DNA from: Antrodiella citrinella
Taxonomy: Eukaryota > Basidiomycota > Agaricomycetes > Polyporales > Steccherinaceae
DNA: 34,965 nt
Assembly: GCA_004802725.1 (NCBI GenBank)
Contig: SGPM01000291.1
Span: 1 to 34,965, forward strand
Reading direction: 5' to 3'
Shown here: in pieces, positions 3,627 through 23,515 of the stretch
Layout of the letters: each line of letters begins with the position of its first letter
How positions within the stretch are numbered: the stretch's first letter is position 1
The notes under the pieces: generated by a model
Seen by the model: only the letters and a program-made list of their open reading frames with translations
What the model was told of the DNA's origin: nothing
The model's database searches: none
Program-made: the position numbers and the translations under genes

Positions 3627-5769
3627 TCAGAGTGTGTAACGGTACCCGCTCCACTTATCTCCCTTCTCTCGTTTCGCGTCTTCTACGCTCGCAAACTTGC
3701 CGTTCTTCAACAAGTCAGTCCGGTCTTCGTTCACGCCTTCGATGACTTCGTCTCGTTCGCCGCGGTCCCGACGTGCGTTCTCTTGCTTGAGGAATACAAG
3801 CATCAGTATTGAGCAGATGAAGCCAATCCCAATGTACGCCAGCACGATGCCATGCCCAAGTCTGTACCACGGTTTGTCGACGCTTCGGTACTACACAAAC
3901 GTTTATAAGTTGACTCAACCTCGTGGCATGAGAAAGGAAGCGACTTACCACGTTGGAACTGACGGCACCGTTGAGGTTTCCGAAACTGATGACCATGGCA
4001 AGGGTGACACTGCGCTTGTACGATCCCTCCACGTTGTTCGACACCCAAGCGATAGTGTTCGGGATGTTGGGATAGATACCGCAAGCTGCTAGGTACACGC
4101 CGAAATAGGACAGACCAGGAGTACGAGAAGCTATCAGAATGATATATCCGGCAGCACCAATACAGCAATTGAAGCTACGGAAAGACGAGCATAGATTTAG
4201 CCTCGGCATCTCCAAAGATACATGATGCTGTGCTCACATATTCAAATAACCACGCTGTCCGCGACGATCAGCAACAAAGCCAACGACACATGTCATGATC
4301 CCAGCAAGCGCATAGACAGGCACAGTCAGCAGGTTGGCGGGGGTGGCAGTAAAACCAAGCTAAGAATAGTGTTGAGACGATGTCATCATGCGCAGTCGTC
4401 CAAGGTGAGAACTCACCTGGTTGATAATAGTGGGCAGGAACAGCGAGAAGGCATACAAAGGACCATCGGATCCCATGTACAACAACACTTTATCAAAAGG
4501 TCAGGGATATCCACGGAACTCGGAAGTCGGTAGATGAGCTTACTTCCAAGCCATGTCCTCCAGTCCAACAAGCTTTGCCAGATATACCGCAGCTTCAACG
4601 TCTCTCCAGCAGCGCTGAATTGGTCGTCATTCTGGAGCCTCCGAATGACGAAAGTCCGCTCGGCCTCGGTCAGGAACTTAGCAGTGTCAGGGAAATCCTG
4701 GATGATCCAGAAGGACGCGACACCAGCTAACACCGTCAAGAGACCTTCCAGGATGAAAATCCAAGCCCACGCAGGCTTGCCTCCAACACCATCCATGTTC
4801 GAAATGGCCGCCTAGATATGAAAATATCATGAAGCGAATGAGCATTTTACATGCTTTCTTCACGAAGGAAGTACTTACAGACAGTAGACCACCGAAAGCA
4901 CCGGATACAGTTGCGGCTGAGAAGAACACGGCAGCACGGATACCGAACTCCGAGCGTTTGTACCAACTGTGAAAAGTTAACAATCAGGAATGGGTGAGAA
5001 GGCCTTCTTCGTAATAAATCACCATGAGAGATAGTAGTTCACGCCTGGGAAGAGTCCGGCCTCGAAAAGTCCGAGCATCCAACGCAATCCTAGGTGAATG
5101 TCATTGAGCAGACTGGACTCAGTATAGCAAGTTCAGAACATACCTAGAAGGCCACCGTAGTTGTGTACAAGACCTTGCACTGTCTATAGATGACATCAGG
5201 ATGTGGGTCATGAATTTGCGACGTCACCCTTACCATCATAACACCCCATAGAAGCATAAGTAACGACAGCCAGATGGAGGGTCGCAGGCGTTTCAAGAAA
5301 ACGTTGGAAGGAACCTATAGTGGTTATGAGATCAATCCACGATGTTGAGAGAGAGAAAGTCGGGAACATACCTCGAAGAGCGCGTATGAGAAGAAAAAGA
5401 CTGTGAGTGCAATGTTGTATTGCGTGTCAGTGATGTGCAAAGACTGCTCTAAGCCGTACAACTGTGGACTATCAGTATCACTGTGGTCGTTCGAGATTTG
5501 AGGAAACTCGCCTTCGCGTTTCCGATACTCGTACGATCCAAGAAACTTAGCAGGTACAAGAATGACAGCCATGGAACAAGGAAAAGATCGAGTTTGCGCA
5601 TCAGCTTGCGTTCATCGACCCCGCTGACATCGATGTGGGCATTGTACAAGGGGACATCCGATTGCTCCTCGACACCGACGTTAGCCTCTTCCGAGCGTTC
5701 AACGCGCTCCTTCTCGTTGGAAGAATGTGTCGAGGGCGCGTTCGACGAGTTCTTCTCCGTCGCGGACAT
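3627..5769 (-). CDS. MFS transporter, Dal5/Tna1-like anion:cation symporter family (carrier 1)
   Basis: Eleven exons (5512-5769, 5372-5461, 5234-5314, 5144-5183, 5023-5089, 4879-4966, 4544-4811, 4417-4487, 4238-4359, 3949-4174, 3627-3890) give exactly 524 residues, normal for the family. Family signatures are visible: SFLDRTSIGNAK after helix 1, LYGLEQSLHITDTQYNIAL, the central GLFEAGLFPGVNYYLS followed by WYKRSE, and WRTWLG before the second half. The protein ends in YRYTL, close to the FRYTL end of carrier 2. It should be a 12-helix plasma-membrane carrier for an organic anion such as a carboxylate, allantoate or nicotinate; the substrate cannot be read from sequence. The start is the second ATG of its frame, beginning MSATEKNSS, with a TATA-like box about 127 bp upstream. 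Intron 1 must be GC-AG (AAG|GCGAGT), because no GT donor keeps the frame across GNAK|LYGLE. Confidence 0.93.
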
Positions 5770-20917: not shown

Positions 20918-23515
20918 TCAGAGTCCGAGCGACTCCATCTCCACCTTCATTTCGTCCACCAGAGTCTGAGCTACTGGACGCCCGGCAGGCTCTCCGGCCC
21001 AGCATCTCTCGCACAGGTCCCAAACGCCGTCGGAAACGGGTAGAGACCCTTGCGCGTGAGTTGGACGTTCGGGACGTTGTCCTTCTACGACCCGACGAAG
21101 CACGAGGTAGTCAGTAAGACCTTGGAAGGGGTCGTGGCATGTGTAGATCTAGTGTATACGCAATAAGCATCGAAGTTCGGCTAGTATTAGGGGTAGACGT
21201 ACCTCCAGGCAGACACATGCAAAGGCGTAAACGTCCCCAGCATACGTTGGTCTTGCTGATGTGAGTTTGTATTCCTCTGGGTCTAGCAGCTCTGGGGCTA
21301 GCCATCGAATGGCACCGTTCGAGGAGGTACGGTAGCTTCCTGTAGTCGGCTCTGCGACAATAGCGAGACCAAAGTCAGCGAGGCGGACTTTCCATTCCTC
21401 ATCTATAAGGATGTTGGCCTACAAGATGAGGTGTGAGAACCGGCTCAAAAGTCGAGGAGCATGAAATACACTCACGCCACGCAGATCGCCATGAACGTAT
21501 GTCTTGGAATGGAGGAACGCGAGTCCTTGCGCGATTTGGGACACCTATATGAAATGTAAACGAGAAGCCCACGAACAAAGTCTGCAAGTGAAATTCGCAT
21601 ACCCAAGAAGTAACGCGAAGAACGCCATCATGGAAACGATTACTATTCTTGAGCTCCATGATGCAGTCACGAATGTTGCCATGGTCCATGAACGGCAGTA
21701 CCATGCATAAACTGTGTTTGAAGTTGGAGGCATCCACACCGAGGAAGGGAAGGATGTGTTCATGCTTGAGCGTGGACCAGATGAGCGTCTCGCGGTAGAA
21801 CGACTGTCATACGTTGAAACTTCAGAATTGCATATGTGGAGTGAGGAAGATAAAGACCTACGCGTTTCGCTCTCAGTTTCTTCCACTCCTCCGTTTTCTG
21901 ATACAATTTGAGCCTCTTCAGCGCAACCTTCTTCCCTTCGTACTCTCCGACAAAAATATCCGCGAACGCGCCGCCTGCCATGGACTCCTTTTCCAAGCAC
22001 TTCACACCTTTGACGAATAACGTGCTAGGTATTTCCCACTGCGGACATGCCAGCGCCATGGTTTGGACGACCTGCGAGATGGCAGGACGGTCTGAAGGCT
22101 GCGCAGACCAGCACCACAGCATCAAAGCCCACAGATGATCTGACATCTCGGCGCCCTCAGAGATACTAGGACGTGAAGGACGACGCCCTTCCAGGACTTT
22201 CAAAAAAACTTGGTGGTCGGAGTTGAGATCGAAGAAAGGCGGTTGACCGGTGTACAGCTATGGCCAAGTTGTAAGCATGCATGACGTCAGGAACGCGCAA
22301 GAACGAGTACTTACTTCGATAGCCATACACGCAAACGAGTAGACATCGCTTGCAAACGTCAGGGGGCTCGTTTCTGAGCTAAGGTCTTCTGGTTCCAATA
22401 ACTCAGGGCAGCGCCAGCGAATGGGCCCGACCTGTGCGAGCGTGTCGTCAAGAGGAACCGTGTTTGTGACAACCGCGAGGTCAAAATTGGTTACGCAAGC
22501 CACACTCTCGGAGTCAATGAGGATATTGATCTGTCAAAGGTCCATGTTAGACATGATATGTGCTGCACGCGAAGTAATCTCGAACCCCTCGCAAGTCCCC
22601 ATGTACGATGTCTTCTCCGTGCAGATATGCAACGCCCTGTGAAACCTCGAACAGCTGTGAGTGGGAAATAGCGTTCATCAGCAAGAATGACTGGCGATGT
22701 CACGAAGCAGTGCTCACCCATTGATTGGTCGTCGTGACCAGTTCGGGTCCGGAAAACTTTCCTTGAACTTTGAGTACATCCATAAACTGCAGTATGTTGC
22801 CGTTCTTGATCCAGGGTAGCACAATGCAGGGTGTATGTTCAAACGCGTCGTCAGAGATGCCAAGGAAGGTAAGAACGTGTCGGTGATCCAAGGTTCTCCA
22901 CAGCAAGGACTCGCGGAAGCAACCCTGATCATACGTTGTTAGTTATCGCCGCTAGCTTGGAAAGGATGATAGCACGCACCAGTCTGAGCTTGCTCTTCTG
23001 AGACTCCTTCAGCTTCGTATAATATCGCAATCGCTTGAGAGCAACTTTCTCCCCCTTGTACGTGCCGCAGAAAATATCCGCGAAGCCTCCAGAAAAGCGA
23101 CTTTCACCATCTTCACACTTCACTTCTTGCAGGAACATGGTCTCGGGCAGTATATCGTTCTTCAAACCCAATTTCCACCACAAGACGCGCAATTTGTTGC
23201 GTGCAAGGACGGTCATGGCTTTGGATTCATCGAAAGGAGGCTCGAGCATCTAAAATAGAAGGTATGAGTGAGATCATGATCGAGACTGGTCAAAATCCTA
23301 CTCACCTCTTGAATGATCTGCGCCGCCAACCGAGCTTCTAGTTCTACAAAGTTCAACACCTCCGAATAGTCGTCTGTCTCTAGGGACGTCGTTACAAGAC
23401 GCGTCACTCTCTGCTCCGGAGTCTCGCTCGTCCTCCGCGATGTAATGGGGTGTCGGAGCCGATCCGAGTCTCCTTCACGCTTGCGAAACGTCTTGGTGCT
23501 GAATGGATTGAACAT
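20918..23515 (-). CDS. Tandem kinase protein: degenerate kinase domain followed by intact kinase domain
   Basis: Ten exons (23306-23515, 22980-23249, 22718-22924, 22586-22654, 22315-22530, 21862-22257, 21603-21803, 21476-21544, 21203-21418, 20918-21148) give 694 residues; all nine introns are phase 0. Domain 1 (about 120-396) has a Gly-rich loop FSGGFADIFCG, Lys142 in VALK, and HGDLRG with Asp249, but reads NFD (267-269) where DFG should be. Domain 2 (about 410-690) has AGGAFADIFVG, Lys438 in VALK, HGDLRGANIL (Asp543) and an intact DFG (561-563) followed by APELL. HGD replaces HRD in both. One uninterrupted exon (21862-22257) holds the end of domain 1 and the start of domain 2, so this is one gene rather than two. 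Both resemble the tyrosine-kinase-like class expanded in agaricomycetes. Domain 1 is probably a pseudokinase regulating domain 2; substrate unknown. The N-terminal 110 residues lack a recognised domain. Confidence 0.88.

What the first reader, a model, noticed from the sequence alone, without database searches (positions are those of the whole stretch)
20918..23515. Single gene encoding a degenerate kinase domain fused to an intact one (JAK-like order)
Both domains keep the VALK lysine and the HGD aspartate, but domain 1 reads NFD where DFG should be, while domain 2 reads DFG. A continuous exon links them. A pseudokinase placed before an active kinase resembles the JAK layout; here it would be an independent invention in a fungal TKL-like lineage.
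Basis: partly seen in the sequence, partly recalled or inferred. Interest (0 to 1): 0.75.

Follow-up and report, generated by a model that had tools for sequence, protein, structure and literature searches.

The report
Fungal pseudokinase fused to active kinase
A gene of a mushroom-forming fungus encodes two kinase domains in one protein, the first apparently disabled at its metal-binding site and the second intact, a layout that resembles animal JAK and yeast Gcn2 kinases but is built from a fungal kinase family.

Summary
The minus-strand gene at 20918-23515 (ten exons) encodes 694 residues, identical to public EUX98_g7210 of Antrodiella citrinella (Polyporales). Domain 1 keeps the VALK lysine, helix-C glutamate, HGD aspartate and following asparagine but reads NFD; domain 2 keeps every catalytic residue checked. 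One 396-base exon joins them. The Steccherinum ochraceum ortholog (67% identical) has the same layout and also reads NFD, so this is not an error or a fresh mutation.

The JAK comparison holds for domain order only: no FERM or SH2 was found, domain 2 lacks tyrosine-kinase diagnostic residues, and the predicted interdomain arrangement does not superpose on JAK1. The order is not unique: Gcn2 has it, and Dictyostelium and plants also pair dead and live kinases.

Among relatives found here, 14 of 24 tandem proteins have a domain with a substituted catalytic residue, against 3 of 176 single-domain proteins; a quick tree needs at least three first-domain and six last-domain changes. A tree-aware association test showed no signal. 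Most likely domain 1 is a pseudokinase that regulates domain 2 in cis; that is inferred, not shown.

The parts
20918..23515 (-). Whole coding region of the tandem kinase gene (10 exons, 694 aa)
   Evidence: Hand-built model, identical to EUX98_g7210, re-derived by spliced mapping
23139..23515 (-). N-terminal region, residues 1-107 (intron included): low confidence 1-27, then confidently predicted helices 33-47, 51-54, 58-72, 84-101
   Evidence: AlphaFold2 model; no Pfam match over it; best PDB sequence match E 0.16
22057..23138 (-). Kinase domain 1 (residues 108-391, introns included), degenerate
   Evidence: HMM envelope, PF07714, coordinates
23034..23036 (-). VALK lysine K142 of domain 1, retained
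22595..22597 (-). HGD catalytic aspartate D249 of domain 1, retained
22480..22488 (-). NFD motif (N267-F268-D269) in place of DFG
   Evidence: same in ortholog P0002
22531..22585 (-). Intron 4, weak donor GTTCGA, between HGDLRG and INILID
   Evidence: ortholog protein is continuous across it
21862..22257 (-). Single 396-base exon joining the end of domain 1 to the N-lobe of domain 2
   Evidence: open frame
22021..22056 (-). Interdomain linker, residues 392-403 (12 residues)
20945..22020 (-). Kinase domain 2 (residues 404-686, introns included), catalytic residues checked all present
21368..21376 (-). DFG motif (D561-F562-G563) of domain 2

Best explanation
EUX98_g7210 is a tandem kinase of a fungal TKL-like family. 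Shown: one gene model; both domains belong to the same family and share its intron positions; domain 1 has lost the metal-binding DFG aspartate and the DFG glycine, keeps the other catalytic residues checked, and is the same in a second genus. Inferred: two family genes (or one duplicated) were joined, the second unit losing its own N-terminal helical region; domain 1 then became a pseudokinase that may still hold nucleotide but transfers phosphate poorly or not at all; it is kept because it contacts domain 2 in cis and sets its activity, by analogy with the Gcn2 pseudokinase (which stimulates its neighbour) or JAK JH2 (needed for both suppression and full activation).
For: One protein, one linking exon. 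NFD together with K, helix-C E, HGD-D and N are all shared by the Steccherinum ortholog. Identity between the orthologs is 185 of 283 aligned residues in domain 1 and 205 of 283 in domain 2 (Fisher p 0.08), so domain 1 is held almost as tightly. The 12-residue linker aligns without a gap. AlphaFold2 gives pTM 0.79 and 0.76 for the two orthologs with confident folds for both domains. The four kinase-domain introns sit at the same places and in phase 0 in domain 1, domain 2 and the two single-domain paralogs tested from the same genome, which fits assembly from whole family units. The DFG aspartate is kept in 176 of 176 single-domain relatives. Other tandem relatives repeat a dead-plus-live pairing.
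Against: No biochemistry, transcript or genetics was available for either domain. pTM is not a test of contact, and no interface error map was given. The predicted orientation does not match JAK1. The ortholog was found in one other species only, so conservation rests on one comparison, without DNA for dN/dS. The tree-aware test of tandem status against loss showed no signal. Whether the domains came by fusion of different genes or by duplication is open: they do not group in the tree, but holding them together is not rejected (p-AU 0.127).
Confidence: 0.6

Rival explanations
1. Scaffold or decoy: domain 1 is catalytically dead and works by binding a partner or presenting a substrate-like surface, with little effect on domain 2.
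For: Tandem relatives place the dead domain first or last with different spacings, which argues against one fixed cis-regulatory geometry across the family. Plant kinase-pseudokinase proteins serve in immunity (PMC6170490, passages); that they act as decoys is recalled.
Against: Nothing here shows a partner; the short linker of constant length in the two orthologs puts the domains side by side.
Confidence: 0.17
2. Domain 1 is still an active kinase by an unusual route (metal-poor or metal-independent), so 'degenerate' is wrong.
For: Lysine, helix-C glutamate, catalytic aspartate and asparagine remain. CASK is listed as active with cations inhibiting it (PMC4718504, passages); that its DFG aspartate is changed is recalled.
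Against: The DFG aspartate takes part in binding the divalent cations and is needed for efficient catalysis (PMC4718504); 176 of 176 single-domain relatives keep it.
Confidence: 0.1
3. Decay: domain 1 is a leftover under weak constraint with no function of its own.
For: The glycine loop is altered in the ortholog (SSWGISDIF), and domain 1 is a little more diverged than domain 2.
Against: Open frame, five of the seven key residues listed under the observation check kept in both species, 65% identity across two genera; the difference from domain 2 is not significant.
Confidence: 0.1
4. The messenger differs from the gene at NFD because of RNA editing.
For: mRNA editing is reported from Polyporales (PMC7306014, passages), and each changed codon is one base transition from a codon of the family residue (codons read).
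Against: No transcript seen; two sites would have to be edited; codons of the ortholog were not available.
Confidence: 0.02

Closest known systems
JAK family (JH2 pseudokinase - JH1 tyrosine kinase)
   Same: Pseudokinase directly N-terminal to an intact kinase; Foldseek's top hit for both ortholog models is JAK1 (7t6f), aligned across both domains.
   Different: No FERM or SH2 match; domain 2 lacks the tyrosine-kinase diagnostic residues; rmsd 24.1 A and TM 0.32-0.33 over both domains. JAK JH2 replaces the catalytic-loop aspartate (PMC4718504, passages); here that residue is kept and the DFG aspartate is lost.
Gcn2 (RWD - pseudokinase - kinase - HisRS)
   Same: Pseudokinase N-terminal to an active kinase, in fungi; in yeast the pseudokinase stimulates the kinase by direct contact (PMC4014428, abstract and passages).
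   Different: No RWD or HisRS match; different kinase family; Gcn2's pseudokinase lacks critical residues for ATP binding, this one keeps most.
[quoted passage not shown]
   Same: Agaricomycete expansion; domain 2 reads DLRGAN, GAIRWLAPE and GQRP, i.e. lacks AARN and the proline and has P where TKs have L/M, as that paper describes for FslK.
   Different: The sections read (abstract, Results and Discussion) describe members as mostly without additional domains and conserved in catalytic residues, and do not mention tandem pseudokinase-kinase members. Domain 1 has a proline at the tyrosine-kinase proline position. Clade membership was not tested.
Plant tandem kinase-pseudokinases (WTK1/Yr15, RPG1)
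   Same: Dead and live kinase in one protein; WTK1's active domain is of non-RD type, as is the family here.
   Different: WTK1 has the kinase first and the pseudokinase second; plant proteins (PMC6170490, passages).
Dictyostelium dual-domain kinases
   Same: Active plus inactive domains, some in the TKL group, the N-terminal one usually inactive; said to have evolved on multiple occasions (PMC1420674, passages).
   Different: Different families and lineage.

Membership tests
Pseudokinase (domain 1) | Lacks at least one of beta3 lysine, HRD aspartate, DFG aspartate (PMC4718504) | tested here: met
   DFG aspartate replaced by asparagine in both orthologs
Pseudokinase (domain 1) | No phosphotransfer activity | not testable with these tools
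   Needs an enzyme assay
JAK | Pseudokinase N-terminal to an intact kinase | tested here: met
JAK | N-terminal FERM domain | tested here: not met
   Pfam scan of the full protein lists PF07714, PF00069, RIO1 and, below its cut-off, TCAD9; only 107 residues precede domain 1
JAK | SH2 domain | tested here: not met
   Same scan
JAK | Tyrosine-kinase signature in the active domain (AARN; P before (I/V)(K/R)W; GXR(L/M); as given in PMC3937382) | tested here: not met
   Domain 2 reads DLRGAN, GAIRW, GQRP
JAK | JH2-JH1 relative arrangement | tested here: inconclusive
   Predicted models differ from 7t6f (rmsd 24.1 A, both models) and, for the ortholog model, 8ewy (20.4 A); the orientation is a prediction
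Gcn2 | RWD and HisRS-like domains | tested here: not met
   No such match; eight residues follow domain 2
FslK (domain 2) | No AARN, no TK proline, GXRP | tested here: met
FslK (domain 1) | No AARN, no TK proline, GXRP | tested here: inconclusive
   DLRGIN and GRRP fit, but it reads GPIRW, with the proline, in both orthologs
FslK | Position inside the FslK clade of PMC3937382 | not tested
Plant TKP | Descent from plant kinases | not tested
   No plant kinase was put in the trees; named listed hits are fungal

The most novel reading that the evidence does not exclude
Mushroom-forming fungi have repeatedly invented their own cis-regulated kinases: when two members of their expanded TKL-like family become fused, one domain tends to lose its catalysis and turns into a built-in regulator, with either order possible. 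The window gene would be one conserved product, a Gcn2- or JAK-like switch made from fungal parts.
Probability: 0.35. Interest if true: 0.65.

Novelty: new member of a known kind. Interest (0 to 1): 0.42.

Why it matters
Pseudokinase-kinase tandems are well-studied regulators in animals and in Gcn2. If a large fungal kinase family keeps generating them independently, in both orders, it offers a natural replicate experiment for asking what a fused dead kinase does and whether order matters. It would also give a handle on a mushroom kinase family whose exact functions were still to be determined in the one paper on it read here (PMC3937382).

Tried and rejected
Membership of JAK: rejected. Annotation artefact (two genes run together): rejected, one open exon spans the join and a second species has the same protein. 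Sequencing error at NFD: rejected, the ortholog has it too. Shared introns as proof of recent intragenic duplication: rejected, the two single-domain paralogs tested have the same four introns. Domains 1 and 2 as each other's closest kin: not seen in the tree but not rejected (p-AU 0.127).

A claim that fusion leads to loss of catalysis: crude counts look strong (14 of 24 proteins against 3 of 176, Fisher 9.7e-13; per domain 15 of 49 against 3 of 176), but they ignore relatedness, and the pair test on the tree had 6 supported pairs and no signal (median p 1). The census leans on automatic gene models and on lists cut at the best 120 of 339, 207 and 620 hits, from searches that scored only the 7994 and 7990 candidates sharing most words; it is not complete, and relatives were chosen by likeness to this gene. 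P0011 domain 1 probably has a model gap; P0101 and P0204 (single-domain) have gaps and are not counted as losses. Four further two-domain proteins (P0055, P0062, P0088, P0135) were left out of the 24 because one kinase-like match scored below 125 bits. The trees hold part of the set: 97 rows, of which 48 single-domain proteins that I picked by hand out of the 163 then known, and 73 rows after 24 distant or odd ones were dropped. One search's additions (P0190-P0204) are in no tree.

VIA-align mainly tested domain 1; its 50 rows hold no JAK, which says nothing either way. No DNA of the Steccherinum ortholog was at hand, so dN/dS was not computed. NCBIfam gave only matches below cut-off.

Literature searches for tandem or pseudokinase members of this fungal family listed no such paper by title or the start of the abstract: 20 of 109 listed; 4 of 4; 20 of 247; 15 of 19; 10 of 63. 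PMC2838846, PMC12394161, PMC5030230 and PMC10197012 were seen only in passages matching my terms, and those passages mention none. The library holds open-licence papers only.

Full report
What is there. The minus strand of 20918-23515 carries a ten-exon gene. All nine introns are GT-AG, 54-63 bases and phase 0. The 694-residue product is identical to EUX98_g7210 of Antrodiella citrinella, order Polyporales, family Steccherinaceae, and a spliced mapping of the public protein gave the same introns. The genome searched as 'own' holds 30.0 Mb in 602 contigs and gave 146 exon-level matches to PF07714, so this is one member of a large family.

The two domains. Residues 108-391 and 404-686 are full kinase domains, 12 residues apart. 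Domain 2 has every catalytic residue checked. Domain 1 has the lysine, helix-C glutamate, catalytic aspartate, asparagine and APE-type glutamate, but NFD instead of DFG. HGD in place of HRD is the family norm (G in 171 of 176 single-domain relatives). Domain 1 also reads GPIRW where 0 of 176 single-domain relatives have the proline, in both orthologs.

Conservation. The only clear ortholog found is P0002, EIP91_005508 of Steccherinum ochraceum, also Steccherinaceae, 67% identical over 96% of the query. It has the same two domains and the same NFD. Identity between the orthologs is 185 of 283 in domain 1 and 205 of 283 in domain 2, not significantly different (p 0.08). The next hits with wide coverage are 32-36% identical over 85-94% of the query, and one-domain hits reach 48%.

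Family pattern. From 204 proteins listed by three searches I cut out kinase domains with a profile built from domain 2 and its matches in the first search. 176 proteins have one domain, 27 two and one three. Of the 176 single-domain proteins, 176 keep the DFG aspartate, 3 have a substitution at the HRD aspartate (P0127, P0160, P0198), and two more show gaps at a key position. Of 24 proteins in which all domains score at least 125 bits, 14 have a substitution at the lysine, HRD or DFG aspartate: first domain in P0001, P0002, P0012, P0013, P0043 and P0132; last domain in P0003, P0004, P0005, P0007, P0008, P0121 and P0164; both in P0011, whose first domain looks like a gene-model gap. On a quick 97-row tree this needs at least three first-domain changes (P0011's set aside) and six last-domain changes. 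Two cautions: the counts ignore relatedness, and the tree-aware pair test had only six supported pairs and found nothing.

Origin. On the careful tree of 73 domains, with the HGD and DFG columns left out, the two orthologs' domains 1 pair (100/100), their domains 2 pair (100/98), and the two pairs do not join; the branches between are weak. Forcing them together is not rejected (p-AU 0.127). Two single-domain paralogs from the same genome, P0016 and P0128, have introns at the same four kinase positions and phase, so the repeated intron pattern looks inherited from the family. The simplest account is a join of two family genes or copies in which the second unit lost its N-terminal region; this is inference.

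Structure. AlphaFold2 on the two orthologs gave mean pLDDT 87.7 and 84.7, pTM 0.79 and 0.76. The N-terminal region forms confident helices in both; no Pfam match covers it and the best PDB sequence match has E 0.16. In both models the activation segment of domain 2 falls below pLDDT 50, that of domain 1 is near 75. Foldseek ranks JAK1 (7t6f) first for both, aligned over both domains, with rmsd 24.1 A and TM 0.32-0.33: the order matches, the predicted relative placement does not.

How it may work. The DFG aspartate takes part in binding the cations and is needed for efficient catalysis, though not absolutely for ATP binding (PMC4718504, passages), so NFD should cripple phosphotransfer while the remaining residues may still allow nucleotide binding. 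[quoted passage not shown] I think cis regulation of domain 2 is the most likely role, about 0.6; the direction cannot be told. Everything after the sequence facts is inference.

What is known. Dead-plus-live kinase proteins are known in animals, in Gcn2, in plants (PMC6170490, passages) and in Dictyostelium, where the authors noted repeated evolution (PMC1420674, passages). The fungal family fits the description of FslK in PMC3937382 (abstract, Results and Discussion) in domain 2; domain 1 departs by its proline. Those sections do not mention tandem members. The literature searches, of which only the listed part was seen, showed no paper on tandem pseudokinases in this family. I file it as a new member of a known kind, with a family-wide pattern that deserves a proper census.

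Noticed in passing
window 23139-23515 (residues 1-107): A helical N-terminal region, predicted with high confidence in both orthologs, has no Pfam match and no significant PDB sequence match; by eye a similar stretch precedes each kinase unit in P0004.
   Followed up: partly
window, domain 1, residues around GPIRWRCPE (just before E295 at 22402-22404): Domain 1 has a proline before IRW, as tyrosine kinases do, in both orthologs; 0 of 176 single-domain relatives have it.
   Followed up: partly
P0121 (metagenome protein, 680 aa) and P0122 (EUX98_g8218, same species as the window): Tandem relatives whose first domains are among the closest to domain 1 of the window gene in the quick tree; P0121 has HGN and DYG in its second domain, P0122's second domain lacks the start of its N-lobe in the public model.
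   Followed up: partly
P0006 (Collybia nuda, 1182 aa) and P0132 (Crucibulum laeve, 1171 aa): Two family kinase domains near the two ends of the protein, about 600 residues apart, with PF24883 also listed for both (its position not checked; I recall it as an NTPase-type domain of fungal NLR-like proteins); P0132's first domain is degenerate.
   Followed up: no
P0003 (Steccherinum ochraceum, 1126 aa): Three family kinase domains in one predicted protein, the last with lysine, helix-C glutamate and catalytic aspartate all replaced.
   Followed up: partly
window 22531-22585: Intron with an unusual GTTCGA donor in the middle of domain 1; homology supports its removal.
   Followed up: partly
window 4413-4811, minus: Weak MFS transporter match (PF07690, E 0.0039, below cut-off) in an exon-sized frame.
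   Followed up: no
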